Shown here: piece by piece, positions 20,353 to 62,385 of the stretch
How positions within the stretch are numbered: position 1 is the stretch's first letter
Layout of the letters: every line of letters begins with the position of its first letter
NCBI GenBank assembly: GCA_963924555.1
Contig: OZ004584.1
Location: 8,687,753-8,751,752, forward strand
DNA from: Crambe crambe
Lineage: Eukaryota; Porifera; Demospongiae; Poecilosclerida; Crambeidae
DNA length: 64,000 nucleotides
Direction: 5' to 3'
The notes under the pieces: model-generated
The model's database searches: none
Told to the model about the DNA's origin: nothing
What the model saw: only the letters and a program-made list of their open reading frames with translations
Translations under genes and position numbers: made by a program

Positions 20353-21213
20353 TTAGCAGAAAGTGTGGATGCATTTGAGCGATGTAAGTGTGTCAGCATA
20401 ATACTTGTGGTCCTTGTTGAGTCGAAGCATCATCCCTGATGCTCCAAGGCTAATGTCCAAACATTTGTCCCAGAAAGCAGCTCGATCTTGTCTCACTAGG
20501 AAAGGCCTCAGAGGGTAGCTGATTTCATTTGCATTGTATGTATAGGAGACGTAGAGGCACAGGAGTACAAGTTCTTTAACATCAGCGAGGGTTTTGACTT
20601 CATACTTCTCCAGGGCACACGCTATCAACATGTAGGAGAAGACAATGTGAGATTCGAGGAGGAAGGAGTTGATGGTCCAGCCGTTCAACTGCAAAGCTCG
20701 ATCTGCACATCTAACCCACATTGCTACTTCGGAAGCTGAGGGAGCATTGGAAATACGTGAACACTTCTTCTGGACGAAAAGTCCGAAGTTGTGAAGGAGA
20801 TCAGTCAGTGTCCATTTCTTCTGTGCCCGTGTAGAGCAGGCCACGATGCGATGGGGGATTCCTTTTGATCCCTTGCTGGGCAAGGGAGGCGGTCTTGATG
20901 AGATACTACTTCTCGAGGATTGCGTTGTTACTTGCTCAGTGGATGAAGCAGCGGTTCTTGTTTCGTCTACTGCTGGAACGGTTGTTTTTGGATGATCTTC
21001 CACCCTCTCAGAAGCAGGTGGTGTTTTGAACGATTCTTTTGCTGTTTTCTCTGCATCTTTGTTTCCAGACTGTCCAACCTTGTCTTTTCTCTTATGGATT
21101 CGCAACTTGGAAGCTGCAAATGTAAGTTTGCGCACGTCTTGAGCCAGCTTGTTCTTTACCTCCATACGATTTCTCGCGTTCAATTCAGCAGTGCTACTCA
21201 TGTGTGAGCCCAT
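20353..21213 (-). CDS. CDK5R1: CDK5 activator, p35/p39 family, intronless
   Basis: Regulatory subunit that binds and activates the cyclin-dependent kinase CDK5, usually at the plasma membrane. With the chosen start the protein has 286 residues (human p35 has 307). The cyclin-fold activation domain is about residues 133-285. Diagnostic strings are NEISYPLRPFLV, AFWDKCLD, LLCLYVSYTYNANE and LNGW; p35 has closely similar strings in the same order. The reading frame opens farther upstream, but a TGA lies two codons before a GTG at 21387. The first in-frame ATG (21228) has a poor context (T at -3), while the ATG at 21213 has A at -3 and G at +4. That start reads MGSHMS, which fits the N-myristoylation rule (Gly2, Ser6) that anchors p35. 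The N-terminal half is basic, Ser-rich and low in conservation. Lack of introns matches vertebrate CDK5R1 and CDK5R2. Family is certain; one-to-one orthology to p35 rather than p39 is not implied. Confidence 0.9.
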   Translation of the reverse strand: MGSHMSSTAELNARNRMEVKNKLAQDVRKLTFAASKLRIHKRKDKVGQSGNKDAEKTAKESFKTPPASERVEDHPKTTVPAVDETRTAASSTEQVTTQSSRSSISSRPPPLPSKGSKGIPHRIVACSTRAQKKWTLTDLLHNFGLFVQKKCSRISNAPSASEVAMWVRCADRALQLNGWTINSFLLESHIVFSYMLIACALEKYEVKTLADVKELVLLCLYVSYTYNANEISYPLRPFLVRQDRAAFWDKCLDISLGASGMMLRLNKDHKYYADTLTSLKCIHTFC

Positions 21214-21466
21214 TGTATTTTTGGTCATGAAACTTTTTGACACCTTGAGAGGAAAGGAAGAAGATGAATGGCTTTGGTGTGAAATTCTCTTCGGGAGATT
21301 TAGTACTTCTTTGCTGCAGGCGTTAACTGGTGTTAGCCCGTTGGAATGATCTTGCAATTTACACTTGACAGTGGAGCTTGGGAGCACTCTTCACTTAGCA
21401 ATCCGCTAGCTGTCTTACTTTGTTCAGATCAGTTTTACTACTGGAATGGCAATTGGACCAGGATGA

Positions 21467-50075: not shown

Positions 50076-50924
50076 CTATTAATAATATATGTACATACGT
50101 AATAATTATTTATAAACAGAGGCAAAAAATAAAAAAGGCAAAGGTGAACAGAAGGAGAGAACATGGAAGATGTTCAATTATCACTAGACCGAATGGAAAG
50201 TGCATGAAGTGTTCATGTTTGCAGGCAGTTAAGTCTGTACACACATGATCACTACACAGCTAATTCCTGCCACCCAACTAGCCAGCAGGCCTGAGGAAGT
50301 AATTTACACTTTGTTGCTTGCAGGCATTCAAAAGTGCAAGGAGAGTTCCCAGTGTGGTACAGGTACCAAGATCAACTGAGTAAACAAGTGAAGAACTGTA
50401 TATAGCAAACTGCAACGAAGGAAGAAAGATTTCATACCTAATTCTTTATTCATAAAAAACTTTAGAAACATGTTAGTTCACTTGCTAAAGGCTTTCTCAC
50501 GGAAAGCAGTGAAGATCTTGAAAGAGGAAATAATAATTCATAGTAATAGTGTAGTGGATGATGGAATTAACCAGGTAGGCAAGCCAGTACACACGATACC
50601 ACACGATACCTTTTATAGTCCTTCACCACAACTTCAATACAAAGGGTAGTGGCCCATGCAATACAACGCCCATTCTATGGAAGATCACCTACTCCAGTGC
50701 AGTATGCATGGATCTAAGAGAGCTAAACTTACCTCTACATACTCCTTGTCATAAATGACTAGATTCCGGTACGGGTTAACGGACACTACCACTTCGCCTA
50801 TATAGCTGTAAACTTTCCCCTTCATGTAGCGAAGCTTCAGGTTCTCCATAAAAGACTCGATGTTCACCTCCTCCAAAAGCACAAAGTCAGCTTTCCCGTA
50901 CTCTGTGGAAATAAAGTCGGCCAT
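22177..50924 (-). CDS. MYO1D: Unconventional myosin ID (class I), 19 exons, complete
   Basis: Single-headed actin motor that links membranes to actin. Exons: 50924-50733, 50007-49896, 48534-48441, 47757-47442, 47311-47192, 46768-46556, 46395-46259, 46127-46013, 45944-45834, 45727-45597, 45472-45398, 45338-45125, 44911-44826, 44706-44502, 43413-43292, 40172-40071, 32971-32725, 31962-31697, 22342-22177. Total 3024 bases, 1007 residues; human MYO1D has 1006. P-loop GESGAGKT at 102-109 (split by intron 2), switch [16 protein letters not shown] at 150-164, switch II DIYGFE at 384-389. IQ-type neck about 695-745 ([13 protein letters not shown], then [11 protein letters not shown]), TH1 lipid-binding tail about 783-1007. 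Start [16 protein letters not shown] mirrors the MYO1D N-terminus. Intron 7 is GC-AG (donor GCAAGC at 46258). Exon 2's acceptor follows a pure CT run, exon 14's a poly-C run. The C-terminus (FWPSAGF) differs from vertebrates. Shares a divergent promoter with the LYR gene. Confidence 0.94.
26421..26543. repeat. 41-base tandem repeat, 3 copies
   Basis: Copies start at 26421, 26462 and 26503. The unit begins ATGCAAGGATCAC and contains TTTACACGAGGGTCGTAACT. Two or three substitutions separate the copies. Confidence 0.9.
27303..27396 (-). other. Candidate alternative last exon of MYO1D
   Basis: On the minus strand, inside intron 18, a good acceptor (TTCTCTTACAG) is followed by a 94-base open segment ending in TGA. 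Exon 18 ends with a split codon (AG). Joining to this G gives Arg followed by 30 residues beginning [16 protein letters not shown]. The normal last exon also starts with G after the same split codon, so the frame fits exactly. The result would be a MYO1D whose last roughly 55 TH1 residues are replaced. The segment is richer in C+G than its surroundings. No polyadenylation signal is obvious just downstream, and a chance match is possible. Confidence 0.38.
28971..31164. mobile_element. 2.2 kb transposon with about 215-240 base inverted ends and TA target site
   Basis: The left arm (28971-29186) and right arm (30924-31164) are inverted copies with indels. Both start GTCAGGCGGATATGTG at the outer edge and share blocks such as AGAAACAGTTTTGGAAGTGG and CGAAATT(T/A)AAAACGCGAAAA. 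TA dinucleotides flank both ends (28969-28970 and 31165-31166). This fits Tc1/mariner-type insertion, though long arms also occur in fold-back elements. I recognise no transposase in the 1.7 kb core. The core includes a minus-strand stretch (about 29280-29490) with protein-like composition that I cannot identify; it may be captured host sequence. Confidence 0.8.
31570..31688. repeat. 41-base tandem repeat beside the MYO1D exon 18 donor
   Basis: Copies start at 31570, 31611 and 31652 and begin TGCAGGACACTATCAT. The array ends eight bases from the GT donor of exon 18 on the minus strand, so intron 18 starts almost directly with repeat DNA. Confidence 0.9.
35971..36078. repeat. 48-base tandem repeat, about 2.25 copies
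   Basis: Copies start at 35971, 36019 and 36067 (partial). The unit begins CCATGAAGGGACTC and includes AGCAGAAGGACCAAGGTATG. Confidence 0.9.
36871..36962. repeat. (GA)n microsatellite, about 46 repeats
   Basis: An uninterrupted GA dinucleotide run of about 92 bases. Confidence 0.95.
39224..39247. repeat. Poly-G run, about 24 bases
   Basis: A homopolymer of G on the plus strand inside MYO1D intron 16. Its true length is uncertain because homopolymers are error-prone in sequencing. Confidence 0.85.
40173..43291. other. MYO1D intron 15 (3.1 kb)
   Basis: Next to exon 16 lies a GAGT/GAGA tract (about 40198-40321). After it comes an imperfect short repeat at 40366-40530 built on CCTACAGGACAAGAYATG. 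CT runs lie near 41809-41835 and 42896-42927. No coding was recognised. Confidence 0.5.
40366..40530. repeat. Imperfect short tandem repeat (CTACAGGACAAGA-type)
   Basis: At least six variants of TACAGGACAAGA(C/T)ATG and related GGACACC(A/T)ATAAAAGA words recur at irregular 16-60 base spacing. It is an old, degenerate array. Confidence 0.7.
43414..44501. other. MYO1D intron 14 (1.1 kb)
   Basis: A short GA run directly adjoins the exon 15 acceptor. A purine-rich patch and a duplicated TTAGTCA/GGGAACTGAGCAGAGGAG block lie near 43440-43660. Otherwise nothing was recognised. Confidence 0.5.
46795..46955. repeat. 33-base purine minisatellite, about 4 copies
   Basis: Units begin GGAGAGGAAGGAGAGGAGAG at about 46811, 46844, 46877 and 46910. 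They lie just upstream (in transcript terms) of the acceptor for MYO1D exon 6 at 46768. The pre-mRNA therefore has a long C/U-rich stretch before that exon. Confidence 0.9.
47758..48440. other. MYO1D intron 3 with a poly-C block
   Basis: A 683-base intron. Its main feature is a nearly pure C block on the plus strand at 48303-48340, interrupted by one A. That block is G-rich in the pre-mRNA, about 100 bases after the donor of exon 3, and a possible G-quadruplex. Nothing else was recognised. Confidence 0.6.
48535..49895. other. MYO1D intron 2 (1.4 kb)
   Basis: This intron interrupts the P-loop codon for the first Gly of GESGAGKT. It contains a CA run near the acceptor (48540-48563), a GGGC/CCCGCC-rich patch near 48605-48680, and a GA run at about 49570-49622. 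No coding was seen. Confidence 0.55.
50011..50071. repeat. (GA)n microsatellite serving as the MYO1D exon 2 polypyrimidine tract
   Basis: On the minus strand this is (CT)n of about 30 repeats, running directly into CCAG at the acceptor of exon 2. Microsatellite length changes here would alter the splice acceptor tract. Confidence 0.9.
50072..50732. other. MYO1D intron 1, remainder
   Basis: About 660 bases with no repeat or coding signal that I recognise, apart from a duplicated CACACGATACC word near 50592-50610. Confidence 0.5.
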
Positions 50925-51152: not shown

Positions 51153-51415
51153 ATGAGCTACAGAGCAGAGATATTGTCACTATACAAGACTATATTGCGG
51201 TTGGGTCGTAGCCAGTTGAAACTAACAGACCAACAGTACTTTAAGAAAGTAGTTGGAGCTGAATTTAGGCGCCATGGAAGGGAAAGTGATCCAGAGGAAC
51301 TGACTTTTCAACTACAAGTGAGATGCAATGATGTAATTTCCTATAATCACGTGGTTTTTATTTATAATAGAAAGCAAGGAAGTTTTTAAAGAGTGGCCTT
51401 GGTGGCCTAAGATGA
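51153..51415 (+). CDS. LYR-motif microprotein (AltMiD51/MIEF1-MP-like), 69 residues
   Basis: LYR proteins act in mitochondria with the acyl carrier protein. The human counterpart I compare, a 70-residue protein encoded upstream of MIEF1, helps mitoribosome assembly. Exons are 51153-51317 and 51371-51415. The 53-base intron starts GTGAG and ends ATAATAG, and joining is in phase 0. The LYK triad is at residues 10-12 (EILSLYKTILRLGRS), followed by QLKLTDQQYF, then EFRR and a C-terminal KARKFLKSGLGGLR. Human equivalents run in the same order: VLSLYRALLRQGR, YTDRDFYF, EFRKNQ, EKGLVFLNGKLG. Without splicing the frame would read through the intron into unrelated residues, and the splice restores the family C-terminus. 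There is no MIEF1-like ORF downstream; the next gene is a sugar-acid dehydratase. Another LYRM subfamily member cannot be excluded. Confidence 0.8.
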
Positions 51416-51486
51416 CTCCATCATCATAATCATCATTCAATTCGAGCAAATTAGATATAATTATGGTCGTCTTTAAAGAAAAGCTT

Positions 51487-51498
51487 ACGCATGCGCAC
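51487..51498. promoter_or_regulatory. NRF1-like GCATGCGCA motif before the dehydratase gene
   Basis: ACGCATGCGCAC lies 46 bases before the dehydratase ATG and 70 bases after the LYR stop. It resembles the palindromic TGCGCATGCGCA bound by NRF1-type factors, with a mismatch at one end. Similar words precede the granulin genes. Confidence 0.4.
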
Positions 51499-51543: not shown

Positions 51544-54500
51544 ATGGAAGGTACGTCTTCATCAGGTGAATGTGTGGCTCTTCCTAGGATCAAGGAGGTG
51601 CGTGCATATGTGAAAAAGGCAGCATCAGACCAAGGTAAAACATAGCCTCAATCTTGACTCCACAGCTCTAGGGCTAACGTTTTTAGGTCACCAAGGGGGC
51701 GGGTCTGCACTGACCCAATGTTTGTGTATGTATGTATGTATGATTATAAGGTGCTGACTGTCACGATGTGGTGGATGAGCATTGGATTAATGGGTACCCC
51801 ACTCCTGTTGCCAACCCCATGTCTGGCTATCCCCGTTACCACGACTACCGCAAGTCCTGGGGCATCAACGCTATGGGGGGTGTGGTGGTTGAAGTAGAAG
51901 CAGAGGGGGGTGTGACTGGTGTAGGTAAGACTTGTGCCAGTAGAAGGAGACAGTGATTGCATGGTGTGATGATCTTAGGAGTGTCCATTGGAGGTGAACC
52001 GGCATGCTTCATCATAGAACACCACTTGAGTCGCTTCCTGGAGGGCCAGGACCCAGCAAATATTGAACTTATGTGGGACCAAATGTTTCGTAGTACTCTC
52101 AACTATGGACGCAAGGGCCTCCCCATGTAAGTAGGATTGGGTAAAGGGTTGAAGCTTCGAGTAAGGGCTTCTTGATCAGGTAAACCCTTTACAGCTTGAT
52201 TTATTGGTAAAGGGATATCTATCCATAGGTCTAGTAAATACTTTCCCTCCTTGTAGTCAAGCCATCAGTGCTGTGGACTTGGCCCTCTGGGACTTACTTG
52301 GCAAGCTAAGACAGCAACCTGTCTATGCTCTTCTCGGAGGAAAGACCAAGGTACAATGTTCCACATTGGGTACGATGTCCACATTGTAATCAAAGAGGAA
52401 CTGTTTATACCAGGAGCGACTGCCAGTCTACTGCACCACTGCACGCCCGGACATTGCAAAGGTATCAATCATCCATTGCATCCTCACTGTTCTTCCATGT
52501 AGTGTCACAAAATAAAGGGGTTGGGTAGTGACAGTGTTGTCCACTTGCTGTCGTCTCACAGGGTGGTCATAGTGATAGTGTCTGCAATTTCAAACGGAAT
52601 TTGTATGACTTTGGCAATGGCTTCCCTAACCTATTCTTCTCTCATGTAGTGAGATGACCCAGGCGGATCCAGGGATTTCGAAGGGAGGGGGCATTTTAGA
52701 TCCGTGCTTAAGCGCGGAGAAAATTTTCAAAGACCACGCCCACTTTTAATTAGAAACGCCCACTTTAATAGGAAAAAAGAACCTGGCTGCAGCGAAGGTT
52801 AGCTAGTCAAGCTACTGCAACTTACACCGTGCCTGGCTGCAGGAGTGAAGGTTAGCTAGTTAGCTACCGTGCCTGGCTGCAGGAGCGAAGGTTAGCTAGT
52901 CAAGCTACAACTTGCTATAAAAGGGGGGACAGCTGCCCCCAATGCCACTCCCTTGGATCCGCCCCTGTGACCGTATTCCTATGGCTGGAATCCAAAAAGA
53001 AAGATCCACATACAGTTTTAACTGGGAGAGTTGATTTTCTCTGAGCATGCACTAGACATTGCAAGATTTCTGGTCAAAGGGTACTGAAGTTTTCAGGTTG
53101 GTTGACCAGTAGAATTTGCGCATGTGCAAGATGAATTCAAACGAGCAAAAATACTGTCATACAAATGCAATGCTCTTAAATTTTGCGAGCACGAATTTAA
53201 TTCTGCACTGTTGGCAAATTTTGTGTCAACCAACCTGAAAACCTCAGTAGTCACGCACATGATTTACTGGGAGTGGGTGCAATATTGTGAACAGGCTGGG
53301 CTGATGTATTGTGAACAGGCTGGGCTGATGTATTGTAAACAGGCTGGGCTGATGTATTGTGAACAGGCTGGGCTGATGTATTGTGAACAGGCTGGGCTGA
53401 TGTATTGGATCACATAATATTGTTTATCTAGTGCCTAAATCTCCTAGGAATTGGGATTCGTTGGTGCTAAGATCCCCTGTGCATACGGTCCAGCGGATGG
53501 AGACCAAGGCTTGCAGAAAAATATCCAACTCTTCAAACAAGCAAGAGAAGCTGTTGGACCTGATTTCCCCTTAATGTGAGACCTTCCTGAATAATCCCCC
53601 TTAATGTGAGACCTTCCTGAATAATCCCCCTTAATGTGAGACCTTCCTGAATAATCCCCCTTAATGTGAGACCTGAATAATCCCAATGTGAGACCTTCCT
53701 GAATAATCCCCCTTAATGTGAGACCTTCCTGAATAATCCCCCTTACTATGAGACCTTCCTGAATAATCCCCCTTAATGTGAGAGACCTCTCCCTTAATAA
53801 GGGGGCCAGAATAATCCCCCCTAATAATATTTCCACTGGTAGAGGTATGTATGTGTGATAGGCTGTTTCCACTGCAGGCTGGATTGCTACATGGCTCTCT
53901 CTCTCCCTTATGCTGTTAAGGTATGTGAAACTCTGTCAGGATGAGAATCATTTTCTCCTCCGTTTGTTAGCTAGCTAAGGCTCTGGAGCCATTGAAGCTC
54001 AAGTGGATAGAGGAATGTCTCCATCCCGACGATTACCACGGCTACACTGAGTTGAGGCATGCTCTGACAGGGACCACCCTTGTCACCACTGGCGAACACG
54101 AATACTCACGGTAAGTGCACTCTATTTGATTGGGAGGGAGGGGGTATTAAAGGTGGTAAAGTATATTATTTCAAGTCTAGCCTTAATCGTGACCATGTTG
54201 ATTCTTTTTCTAAAAGAAAACACTGAAAGTGTATCCAATAGCATTATAGTCAACATCAGAGCTATTAAGGATTGTTTGGATAACTACAACACAAACCATA
54301 TACCAAACAGTTAGTATGGGAAAGATCAGAATCTGTTCCTAGCATATACAATAGTGACTGTATTTTTGTGTGTCTGTGGTCATATGTAGTTATGGTTACC
54401 GCCTCCTGATAGAGGGAAACTGTGCAGACATTATCCAACCGGACATCACTTGGATGGGCGGCATCACTGAGGCAAGTGTTATGAAACATTGCTCCAAGCA

Positions 54501-56083: not shown

Positions 56084-57872
56084 TTAGAGTATATCCTTCT
56101 GGGGCCTGGACACTATCTCCAGCAAGGGGTGACTCGATCCATCCTTCTTGCACCCATTGGTCAAACAGCGGTATCCTTCAGGACAACAATTCTTCTTATC
56201 ACAGCACACAGCATTGGGTTCAGGACAACATCCGAAATTACCACCCCCAACGCTACAGCACGTATCGCCATCAGGACATGTTCCACCAGGACAGGAGACC
56301 TTGTGTACCTCCTGTTCTTTGGGGCGTCCGATGAGCTCTAGCAAGGGGTGACTCGATCCATCCTTGATGCACTCGTTAGTTGAACAGCTGTATCCTTCAG
56401 GACAACAATGCTTCATATCAGCACAGCACACAGCACTAGGTTTAGGACAACATCCATATATGTCATCCCCAACATTACAACATGTGTCGCCATCAGGACA
56501 TTGCTGATTTCCACCAGGACAGAAGACATTGCGTACCTTCTGTTTTTTGGGGCGTCCGATGAGCTCCAGCAAGGGATGACTTGATGTATCTTTGATGCAC
56601 TTGTTAGTCGTACAGCTGAAACCTCCAGGACAACAATGCTTCATATCAGGACAGCACACAGCACTGGGTTTAGGACAACATCCGAAATTACCACCCCCAA
56701 CGCTACAGCAGGTGTCGCCATCAGGACATTGATGAGCTCCATCAGGACAGGTGATATCTTTTACTTTCTGTTCTTTGGGACGTCCAACTACCTCCAGCAA
56801 GGGGTGACTGGATGTATCTTTGATGCACTCGTTAGTTGAACAGCTGTATCCTTCAGGACAACAATGCTTCATATCAGCACAGCACACAGCACTAGGTTTA
56901 GGACAACATCCATATATGTCATCCCCAACATTACAACATGTGTCGCCATCAGGACATTGCTGATTTCCACCAGGACAGAAGACATTGCGTACCTTCTGTT
57001 TTTTGGGGCGTCCGATGAGCTCCAGCAAGGGATGACTTGATGTATCTTTGATGCACTTGTTAGTCGTACAGCTGAAACCTCCAGGACAACAATGCTTCAT
57101 ATCAGGACAGCACACAGCACTGGGTTTAGGACAACATCCGAAATTACCACCCCCAACGCTACAGCAGGTGTCGCCATCAGGACATTGATGAGCTCCATCA
57201 GGACAGGTGATATCTTTTACTTTCTGTTCTTTGGGACGTCCAACTACCTCCAGCAAGGGGTGACTGGATGTATCTTTGATGCACTCGTTAGTCGCACAGC
57301 TGTATCCTTCAGGACAACAATGCTTCATATCAGCACAGCATTCAGCATTGGGTTTAGGACAACATCCGAAATTATAATTATCACCCCCAATACTACAGCA
57401 TGTGTCACCATCAGGACATTGATGAGCTCCATCAGGACAGATGACGTTTCGTACAGTAACCTTTTCTTTGTTCAAGTCATACCCCAATAGCTTAAGCAAG
57501 GGATGAGACTGCAAGTAAAAGGGAAAGAGGTTGTAATTCCTTCAGGTTCAGCATATTAAATGAGCTAACCTCATAGGATGTGCAAGTCCCATATCCCGTG
57601 CAGTATTTTCCCCAGGGACAACAGTGCTTCAAGTCACTACAGCAATTAGCGAGGGGGTCAGGACAACAGCCGTAGTAGTAGGATCCGATAGCGCAACAAG
57701 TGCCTCCCAAACAGGTGCCCCCATCAGGACAAGTGATCCCGACGGACCCAGACGCTTTCACCTTCATGGCCTTGGTGATCATACGAGCCTGCGACAGTTG
57801 CTCCTTCAGAGGGTGGCAAACAGCCACACCAAATAGCAAAGAACAGCACACAACCAAAGAAAACACAGCCAT
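56084..57872 (-). CDS. GRN: Secreted multi-granulin protein, 7 modules, 575 residues
   Basis: Progranulin-type secreted, cysteine-rich protein. Exons are 57872-57570 and 57508-56084, with a 61-base GT-AG intron in phase 0. The chosen ATG (57872) starts a clear signal peptide, MAVFSLVVCCSLLFGVAVCH. An in-frame ATG at 57920 would add a charged leader and overlaps an NRF1-like motif, so I reject it. One granulin module lies in exon 1 (about residues 48-97). Six more lie in exon 2, each with the pattern C..C.DGDTCC....FGCCP.P.AVCC.D.KHCCP.GY.C. They are joined by SSHPLLE(L/V)(I/V)GRPK linkers. Modules 3-4 and 5-6 are almost identical in DNA (456-base tandem duplication). The last module is shortened (CCDKKNCCPEGY). 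The protein ends QKDIL. It lies 125 bases downstream of the second granulin gene on the same strand. Confidence 0.9.
56341..57252 (-). repeat. 456-base tandem duplication of two granulin modules
   Basis: The two halves (about 56341-56796 and 56797-57252) appear identical except for the first roughly 25 bases. Each encodes 152 residues, two granulin modules with linkers. The phase-preserving duplication kept the frame open. Silent sites are identical as well, so it is recent or has been homogenised by gene conversion. Confidence 0.9.
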
Positions 57873-57907
57873 CACGCTTTCCTGGCCTTCTACTCGGATT
57901 TCCTTTT

Positions 57908-57919
57908 TGCGCATGCGCA
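57908..57919. promoter_or_regulatory. Palindromic NRF1-type site TGCGCATGCGCA
   Basis: A perfect 12-base palindrome, 36 bases before the first granulin ATG. It fits the NRF1 consensus YGCGCAYGCGCR. Related words precede the second granulin gene (59260-59268), the relic region (60888-60899) and the candidate exon (62241-62250). Confidence 0.5.
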
Positions 57920-57984
57920 TAGAACTGTGGCGTAATGAAGTAACAAAATTAGCACATAATATCTACTAAAAGGGGAAAGTCACT

Positions 57985-57990
57985 TTTAAT
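57985..57990 (-). terminator. Possible polyadenylation signal ATTAAA of the second granulin gene
   Basis: ATTAAA lies eight bases after the stop on the minus strand and about 65 bases before the NRF1-like site of the next gene. Little room exists for a 3' UTR, so cleavage must be close by, or the two genes share a transcript. Confidence 0.35.
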
Positions 57991-57997
57991 ATTACAG

Positions 57998-59228
57998 TTA
58001 AAGAATGTCTTTTTGCGGCTTCAACACCAATTTGAGCAGAGGGTGTTCAGCTCTAGGTGGCTTGACGCAAGCACTAGCTGCACAACTGTAGCCTTCAGGA
58101 CAACAATGTGTCATGTCGCTACAACAATTAGCATTGGCTATAGGACAGCATCCATAGCTTCCTCCCCCCACACTGCAACACGTTTGACCATCTTTGCATG
58201 TTCCATTATCAGGACAGACGATTGTGGGAGACTTTTCTTTTTCAGGACGTCCTATTAATTGGAGTAATGGGAAATTTGACCCGGTCCTCAGGCAGTGCGT
58301 TATACCACAATGGTGGCCTGAAGGACAGCAATGTTTCCTGTCGCTACAGCAAACACCATTGAACTCAGGACAACATGCATATTCTCCTAGCCCGGCATAG
58401 CAACACGTTTCATAATCTTTGCACTCATCACCATCAGGACAGTACACGTTCAGTACTTTCGGCTTGACTGATTCCTGAAGAGGTTGATCACCTCCAGATG
58501 AAGTACAATTTCCATTAAGATCACAAACATAGCCTGCAGGGCAACAACGTTTCGAGTTGGCAGTGTTGCAACAAACGGGAAAGGCTGCAGTGCAGCAGTA
58601 ATCATCACAACACACTGGATGGTCCGAAGTGCAACAACCACTATTGCCTCCACAACAAACTGGAAAGTTTATAGAGCAGCACCCTTCACCGTAACAACAA
58701 ACATTGCCCGACTGGCAGCACCTGTCACCACTGCAACAAACGGCATTCGGATCAGGACAGCAATCATAAGTTCCAGTCCCTGAATTGCAGCAAGTTTGAC
58801 CATCAGCACACGTCGAACCGCCAGGACAGGTCACGTTCCCTACTCCTTTCATCTTGAGTAAAAACTGAGACTGCAAGTACAGGGAGAGAAAAGGGTTTTA
58901 AGTTATCATACTTCAAGTTTAATAGTGCCCTTTAATTTTCAAAAACTGTAGACTAGCTGAAATTGTTTAGCTCGAAAGTCACAGCAATTATTTTTTTTTC
59001 GATTACAGTTTACGTTACTTGGCATCAGCTACCTACGGCTACCTACCTACCTACTTACCTAGCTAGCTAACAAGAAAAAAGTTTTTACCAAAATTTACTA
59101 GATTGTACCTTTAGGTTAGTCTTGGAGTCATGAGCTCGCATCTTCATCTTCACAGGCTCTGCGAGAGGATTAGAAGTAGCGAGGCCCAACAAAAGTACGG
59201 ACACTGCAAGCTGAAGAACCACAGCCAT
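57998..59228 (-). CDS. Secreted granulin protein with expanded Cys-Cys ladder, 330 residues
   Basis: Exons are 59228-59109 (signal peptide MAVVLQLAVSVLLLGLATS plus a short basic propeptide) and 58870-57998. The intron is phase 0 and exon 2 starts TCTCA, as in the neighbouring granulin gene. The first module, about residues 55-156, has 12 Cys-Cys pairs instead of the usual four. It runs CCSGDRCC, VCCYGEGCC, VCCGGNSGCC, VCCDDYCC and VCCN before the normal CCPAGYVC close. Modules 2 (about 184-228) and 3 (about 259-303) are ordinary. Linkers (PLLQLIGRPE) match the first gene. The C-terminus QKDIL is shared with it, showing common descent. Secretion is expected from the signal peptide; the role is unknown. 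Confidence 0.88.
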
Positions 59229-59316
59229 CTTGTCGTCGTTCTAAATCCCGGATCCCTTTTGCGCATGCTCAGTTGTACAGGGAATCTTGCTGAGTGTGCA
59301 TTCTCACGCTCCTACT

Positions 59317-60735: not shown

Positions 60736-61012
60736 TTGAGCCTCGAAAATCTCACCGGAGAAGGTAAATGGCAAAAGGAAAGAATAGAACTATACTAGAA
60801 CTATACTAGAACACTAGAACAGTCACTAGCTAGCTCTTCAAAGCTAACTTCTCTAAAGTCCTTTCCAAATTCCATAAATTCAAGCAGTGCGCATGCGTAG
60901 TAGTCGGACGCCTGACGACCAATTTTTGCAAGATTCCCGTGGTCGTTCCTCACACTTTCATGTGCACAGTAATAGTCTAATTTATAATTATACTACAAAT
61001 AACAACACAACA

Positions 61013-62188: not shown

Positions 62189-62385
62189 CTAAACTTTGGA
62201 CCTTGCGCGCGTGGGTGTTATTGAGCTAGTAGTAGTCTGAGCATGCGCAGAACTTTCAGCAGTGAAAATTGTGATTACAAATTTTTGAGGTGATATTGGT
62301 CTACTACTTTGAATGCAGTGTTCAGTCTTTCAGCTTGTCAGGTGACCTTGAATTGAGCTGCATGAATAAGTCAATACATACAGAG

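What the first reader, a model, noticed from the sequence alone, without database searches (positions are those of the whole stretch)
51153..51415. Stand-alone gene for an AltMiD51-like LYR microprotein
In humans this 70-residue mitoribosome-assembly LYR protein is translated from an upstream ORF of the MIEF1 mRNA. Here a 69-residue, two-exon gene has the same motif order, including the C-terminal block restored only by removing a 53-base intron. It sits alone in a divergent pair with MYO1D, with no MIEF1 next to it. This suggests the protein began as, or can be, an independent gene, and that fusion to the MIEF1 transcript is a later or lineage-specific state.
Basis: partly seen in the sequence, partly recalled or inferred. 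Interest (0 to 1): 0.72.

Follow-up and report, generated by a model that had tools for sequence, protein, structure and literature searches.

The report
Sponge AltMIEF1-type LYR protein gene
A sponge appears to carry, as its own small two-exon gene, the mitochondrial ribosome-assembly protein that humans make from an upstream reading frame of the MIEF1 mRNA; this fits what is already published about the family and is an ordinary, though tidy, example.

Summary
The window very likely lies in the demosponge Crambe crambe (assembly size, mtDNA length and six scaffold lengths match). Positions 51153-51317 and 51371-51415, joined across a 53-base GT-AG intron, encode 69 residues whose best relatives among solved structures are mammalian AltMIEF1/MIEF1-MP chains (E about 2e-7), then kinetoplastid L0R8F8, then LYRM4 (E 0.05). 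Human AltMIEF1 finds this locus first in the sponge genome. The intron ranks first of 369 possible introns. Separate LYRM2-, LYRM4-, ETFRF1-, SDHAF1-, SDHAF3- and NDUFB9-type loci exist, as do exons of the partners MALSU1/RsfS and mitochondrial ACP. No MIEF1-like match was found, without a positive control. The tree is unresolved. Likely job: bridging MALSU1 and acyl-ACP on the assembling large mitoribosomal subunit. [quoted passage not shown] New member of a known kind; no transcript evidence.

The parts
51153..51317 (+). Exon 1 of the AltMIEF1-type gene: codons 1-55 (LYK motif, TD, EF)
   Evidence: the whole-genome protein search lists this place only
51318..51370 (+). Inferred 53-base GT-AG intron
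   Evidence: Rank 1 of 369 candidate introns and of 844 acceptors by the family profile; introns of 54 and 63 bases (and one of 116) inferred in the next gene. No transcript seen
51371..51415 (+). Exon 2: codons 56-69 and stop, carrying the C-terminal LG(G) block shared with the AltMIEF1/L0R8F8 chains
50733..50924 (-). First coding exon of a class-I myosin (MYO1D by recall), divergent neighbour
   Evidence: Pfam Myosin_head; exon boundaries read by eye and checked; a further exon best matches myosin-Ic and -Ib chains in the PDB (best 60 of 145 shown). MYO1D rather than another class-I myosin is recall, not tested
51544..52350 (+). First exons of the downstream same-strand gene, MR/MLE enolase superfamily, probably rhamnonate-dehydratase-like (that last name is recall)
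   Evidence: PF02746 in 1 of the 4 pieces scanned, 52165-52386; inferred introns 51635-51750, 51925-51978, 52351-52413; the frame stays open across the first two
51486..51497 (.). NRF1-like palindrome (consensus recalled) between the LYR stop and the downstream ATG, a possible separate promoter for the downstream gene
   Evidence: one mismatch; function not shown

Best explanation
This is the nuclear gene, very likely of Crambe crambe, for the orthologue of AltMIEF1 (MIEF1-MP, AltMiD51, L0R8F8), a short LYR-type protein. Shown here: the reading frame, the intron's fit, best-hit relations in both directions, separate loci that look like six other LYRM types, and exons of the partner genes MALSU1/RsfS and mitochondrial ACP. 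Inferred: the mRNA is spliced and separate from its neighbour's; the protein is imported into mitochondria; its three helices take up the acyl chain of acyl-ACP and bridge ACP to MALSU1 on the maturing large mitoribosomal subunit, which may keep the subunits apart until assembly is complete, as proposed for man and kinetoplastids. In the vertebrate line this gene and MIEF1 came to be expressed from one mRNA.
For: PDB search: four mammalian AltMIEF1 sequences rank first (2.3e-7 to 6.8e-7), chains 7aoi and 6yxy next (about 2e-3), LYRM4 from 0.052. Human AltMIEF1 (63 of its 70 residues) against the whole genome: window locus 0.0044, the only other match 1.17. A profile of four AltMIEF1/L0R8F8 chains gives the window protein 37.2 bits and at most 17.5 to 16 other LYRM sequences (10 human from memory, 6 sponge). 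Ten columns are invariant in the five sequences, including TD and the C-terminal LG. Intron rank 1 of 369. Partners: an RsfS exon over the cut-off and a mitochondrial-type ACP exon ('mitochondrial-type' by eye). Seven LYR-type loci: six places by PF05347 and one more by PF13233.
Against: No RNA or protein evidence. With all 18 rows the five AltMIEF1/L0R8F8 rows were not one group (34% of bootstrap trees); after leaving out three long rows they were, with support 63/76, and none of four rival placements was rejected (p 0.117 to 0.316). Identity to human AltMIEF1 is 40% over a short protein. By shuffled-alignment z-score LYRM9 (11.0), LYRM4 (10.4) and ETFRF1 (10.1) lie beside the Leishmania-labelled chain (10.3), and ETFRF1's raw score (77) exceeds that chain's (70), though human AltMIEF1 is well ahead (107, z 16.2). 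The kinetoplastid chain 7am2 scores no better than LYRM4 (0.1 against 0.052). LYRM1, LYRM7, LYRM9, NDUFA6 and FMC1 were not identified in the sponge genome (no search aimed at them was made). No AATAAA or ATTAAA lies between the LYR stop and the next gene, so a separate 3' end is not evident.
Confidence: 0.87

Rival explanations
1. The gene belongs to another LYRM subfamily (LYRM9, LYRM4, SDHAF1 or ETFRF1) and its likeness to AltMIEF1 is shared LYR-fold background.
For: z-scores to (recalled) LYRM9 11.0, LYRM4 10.4, ETFRF1 10.1 are sizeable; R-to-K in the motif is stated for the Lyrm5/ETFRF1 subfamily (PMC11293456); AU tests did not reject grouping with ETFRF1 (p 0.191), LYRM1 (0.129), SDHAF1 (0.316) or LYRM4 (0.117).
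Against: AltMIEF1 of man is the best match, and the locus is the best match for it; separate sponge loci that look like LYRM4, SDHAF1, SDHAF3, ETFRF1, LYRM2 and NDUFB9 exist; TD and the C-terminal LG are shared with all four AltMIEF1/L0R8F8 chains.
Confidence: 0.08
2. The AltMIEF1 frame is not an independent transcript here either: it lies in the 5' leader of the MR/MLE-family gene 128 bases downstream, as a second, unrelated bicistronic arrangement.
For: Same strand, 128-base gap, no AATAAA or ATTAAA between stop and next ATG.
Against: Four further ATGs lie between, the first overlapping the LYR stop, which would hinder reinitiation; an NRF1-like palindrome sits about 50 bases before the downstream ATG. 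Short gaps between genes may be usual in this genome (not measured).
Confidence: 0.07
3. The exon-1 match is a decayed fragment and the intron is imagined.
For: No transcript or second species was available.
Against: Pfam and PDB scores, an uninterrupted frame, intron rank 1 of 369, and a single matching place in the genome.
Confidence: 0.02

Closest known systems
AltMIEF1 / MIEF1-MP / AltMiD51 / L0R8F8 of mammals (PDB 5ool, 7qh7; 9e9c and 9hcg, taken as mouse by recall)
   Same: Length about 70 residues; L-Y, TD, EF and C-terminal LG in the same order; 40% and 39% identity
   Different: LYK instead of LYR; coded by its own two-exon gene with no MIEF1 coding sequence beside it, not by an upstream ORF of MIEF1
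Kinetoplastid L0R8F8 (PDB 6yxy, 7aoi, 7am2; species recalled)
   Same: Same core and C-terminal block; a kinetoplastid module with L0R8F8 is described in PMC8998825
   Different: Chains of 91-126 residues in which the match begins at residue 30 or later; 25-26% identity
LYRM4/ISD11
   Same: LYR family; next best family in the PDB
   Different: E 0.052 against 2.3e-7; its match stops before the C-terminal block; the sponge has its own LYRM4-type exon

Membership tests
LYRM (Complex1_LYR) superfamily | Match to PF05347 over the curated cut-off | tested here: met
   43.1 bits, cut-off 24.8
LYRM (Complex1_LYR) superfamily | L-Y-R motif with downstream F | tested here: inconclusive
   LYK at residues 10-12, F at residue 38; R to K is described for the Lyrm5 subfamily, so a known kind of variation
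AltMIEF1/MIEF1-MP subfamily | Best match among LYRMs, in both directions | tested here: met
   the human set is from memory and lacks NDUFB9, which is among the PDB chains
AltMIEF1/MIEF1-MP subfamily | Shared TD and C-terminal LG block (a feature I derived, not a published definition) | tested here: met
   T25, D26, L65, G66 invariant in 5 of 5 sequences; the last two depend on the inferred intron
AltMIEF1/MIEF1-MP subfamily | Groups with the subfamily in a tree | tested here: inconclusive
   Not one group with 18 rows; one group with 15 rows, support 63/76
AltMIEF1/MIEF1-MP subfamily | Binds MALSU1 and acyl-ACP on the large mitoribosomal subunit | not testable with these tools
   Only presence of exons of the partner genes shown
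MIEF1 bicistronic arrangement | Encoded upstream of a MIEF1 coding sequence | tested here: not met
   The next gene is of the MR/MLE family. Mab-21, Mab-21_C and MID51-like_C models give no match in the genome at E 1, but no eukaryote control was available, so absence of MIEF1 from the genome is not shown
ETFRF1/LYRM5 | Being the genome's ETFRF1 gene | tested here: inconclusive
   A separate ETFRF1-type exon lies at C3:8754752 and pairs with (recalled) human ETFRF1 at 98/97, which argues against; but grouping the window protein with that pair was not rejected (p 0.191)

The most novel reading that the evidence does not exclude
The sponge gene is co-transcribed with the unrelated MR/MLE-family gene 128 bases downstream, so that AltMIEF1 has come to lie in a shared leader twice, with two different partners, pointing to something about this gene that favours bicistronic use.
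Probability: 0.05. Interest if true: 0.5.

Novelty: new member of a known kind. Interest (0 to 1): 0.22.

Why it matters
It gives an early-branching animal example of the AltMIEF1 protein as its own gene, which helps date the joining with MIEF1 within animals. It does not change the picture in print, where the subfamily is ancestral to eukaryotes and MIEF1 is a vertebrate protein. It is a useful annotation, since a 69-residue gene with a 53-base intron is easily missed.

Tried and rejected
Tried without result: a scan of bacterial and archaeal contigs with the protein (294 pattern matches, none a relative) and of viral contigs with alignment A1 (13 pattern matches, none a relative), as expected for a family reported absent from prokaryotes (PMC11293456). 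Mab-21, Mab-21_C and MID51-like_C searches gave nothing in the genome; for the first and third nothing rang in the controls either, and the second rang only in one archaeon under its cut-off, so absence of MIEF1 is not proved. A profile search of the PDB with alignment A1 put the seven AltMIEF1/L0R8F8 sequences first, but it is circular because the profile was built from such chains. A tree was built twice and stays unresolved; sponge NDUFB9 and human NDUFA6 and FMC1 were in neither tree. Structure prediction was not run: the spliced protein is not a letter-for-letter translation of the window, and exon 1 alone would add little. A first paper search for the species by numbers failed; a second found it. 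A search for the history of MiD51 was used only for PMC3578726.

Considered and set aside: ETFRF1, SDHAF1, SDHAF3, LYRM2, LYRM4 or NDUFB9 as the identity of the gene, because the genome holds separate loci that look like those types (labels by comparison with recalled human sequences). PMC6283296 was looked at for an evolutionary statement and only two reference-list passages came up. PMC8547962 reports that Plasmodium lacks L0R8F8 (passages), which bears on loss, not on this gene.

Full report
WHERE. The window is C6:8687753-8751752 of a 143,139,886-base assembly in 119 contigs. The contig that carries cox1, C119, has 19,532 bases, and the cox1 frame has seven in-frame TGA codons, which table 4 reads as tryptophan. 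A paper search found the genome note of Crambe crambe, 143.20 Mb with a 19.53-kb mitochondrial genome (abstract). The passages seen list, among others, chromosome lengths of 9.68, 9.08, 7.66, 7.63, 7.57 and 6.34 Mb. These equal C3, C6, C11, C12, C13 and C20 here, to two decimals.

OBSERVATION. The frame begins with ATG at 51153. Exon 1 runs to 51317 (55 codons), a 53-base GT-AG intron follows, and exon 2 (51371-51415) adds 14 residues and a stop. Pfam Complex1_LYR scores 43.1 bits for the spliced protein and 35.8 for exon 1. To test whether the intron is arbitrary, I scored every GT-AG intron of 36 to 700 bases with a donor from 51240 to 51389 (369 candidates) with a profile of human, mouse and two kinetoplastid chains that does not include the sponge. 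The proposed intron is first at 37.2 bits, the next 30.3, the unspliced frame 27.0. Holding the donor fixed, it is first of 844 acceptors up to 63,499, the next at 30.9. Introns of 54, 63 and 116 bases are inferred in the next gene (one search had printed the last of these one base short), so 53 bases is not odd here. No transcript was available.

IDENTITY. [quoted passage not shown] mouse by recall), then two L0R8F8-type chains (0.0018, 0.0024), LYRM4 from 0.052, a third L0R8F8 (7am2) at 0.1, and NDUFB9 from 0.36. The kinetoplastid origin of the L0R8F8 chains is recalled for the entries and stated in general by PMC8998825. In the other direction, the human sequence finds two places in the sponge genome at E up to 10: this one (0.0044, exon 1 only) and an SDHAF3-type exon (1.17). 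One kinetoplastid chain finds seven sequences up to E 10, all of them kinetoplastid or mammalian L0R8F8/AltMIEF1, which supports one family. Ten columns are invariant in the five-sequence alignment. The motif is LYK; PMC11293456 reports lysine there for the Lyrm5 subfamily. Trees are weak, as that paper warns for these short proteins: with 18 rows the AltMIEF1 group was not one clade; with three long rows left out it was, at 63/76, and grouping the window protein with ETFRF1, LYRM1, SDHAF1 or LYRM4 was not rejected. The case rests on similarity searches and on the presence of the paralogues, not on the tree.

GENOME CONTEXT. PF05347 gave six places and PF13233 three, one of them new, so seven distinct LYR-type loci (the tool scores only its best candidates, so more may exist). 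By comparison with recalled human sequences the other six look like LYRM2, LYRM4, SDHAF1, SDHAF3, NDUFB9 and ETFRF1. The spliced protein matches one place in the genome (residues 1-56), and no intronless copy was listed. An RsfS/MALSU1 exon (31.2 bits, cut-off 21.6) and one mitochondrial-type ACP exon of two PP-binding places are present. Mab-21, Mab-21_C and MID51-like_C models gave no match at E 1, without a eukaryote control. [quoted passage not shown] Locally the gene is divergent from a class-I myosin, 228 bases between start codons, and is followed after 128 bases by an MR/MLE-family gene on the same strand. Between them lie four ATGs, the first overlapping the LYR stop, and an NRF1-like palindrome (consensus recalled), which favour a separate promoter. 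Against that, there is no canonical poly(A) signal in the gap. Neither is proof.

HOW IT LIKELY WORKS. In man, L0R8F8 bridges MALSU1 and mitochondrial ACP on late large-subunit intermediates; [quoted passage not shown] A kinetoplastid counterpart module is described, and the block is said possibly to be conserved across eukaryotes (PMC8998825, passage). The sponge protein most likely does the same. That is inference from orthology and from the partner genes.

WHAT IS KNOWN. [quoted passage not shown] its text does not contain the words sponge or Porifera, and its species figure and supplements were not seen. PMC5703645 (passages) describes AltMiD51 as conserved in vertebrates, and with MiD51 from humans to zebrafish. 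PMC10032668 (passage) says MIEF1-MP evolved during vertebrate evolution, which this gene and the kinetoplastid chains would contradict. PMC13303939 (section 13 and passages) lists MIURF-MIEF1 among 14 bicistronic human transcripts and says that in most cases homologues of both proteins predate the bicistronic state; the per-pair data are in a figure that I could not see. None of the papers listed (40 of 42 listed), 22 and 51 is, by title or abstract start, about a sponge AltMIEF1 gene; these searches cover open-licence full texts only and none had 'sponge' as a term.

VERDICT. New member of a known kind, interest about 0.2. On checking, confidence in the best explanation was lowered from 0.88 to 0.87 because the missing poly(A) signal and the weaker kinetoplastid scores are now counted, and the ETFRF1 membership row was changed to inconclusive.

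Noticed in passing
window 56084-58897, minus strand: Granulin gene or genes: the frame 56087-57541 holds six granulin stretches (PF00396, 6e-55); the neighbouring frames to 58897 look alike by eye but were not scanned
   Followed up: partly
window 51486-51497, 53117-53128, 57908-57919, 59260-59271, 60888-60899, 62238-62249: NRF1-like palindromes (YGCGCATGCGC, up to one mismatch): 12 strand matches at six places, 0.06 expected in shuffles. One lies before the MR/MLE gene and one in the upstream part of a cysteine-rich, granulin-like frame, so they may mark promoters in this sponge
   Followed up: partly
window 20356-21390, minus strand: Long exon of a CDK5 activator (p35-like), PF03261 6.8e-44
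   Followed up: no
window 53283-53407 and 53567-53783: Two tandem arrays within the MR/MLE-family gene: a 24-base unit, 5.2 copies, and a 30-base unit, 7.5 copies
   Followed up: no
Literature: PMC10032668 (passage): It states that MIEF1-MP evolved during vertebrate evolution; the kinetoplastid chains and this sponge gene suggest that the protein is far older
   Followed up: partly
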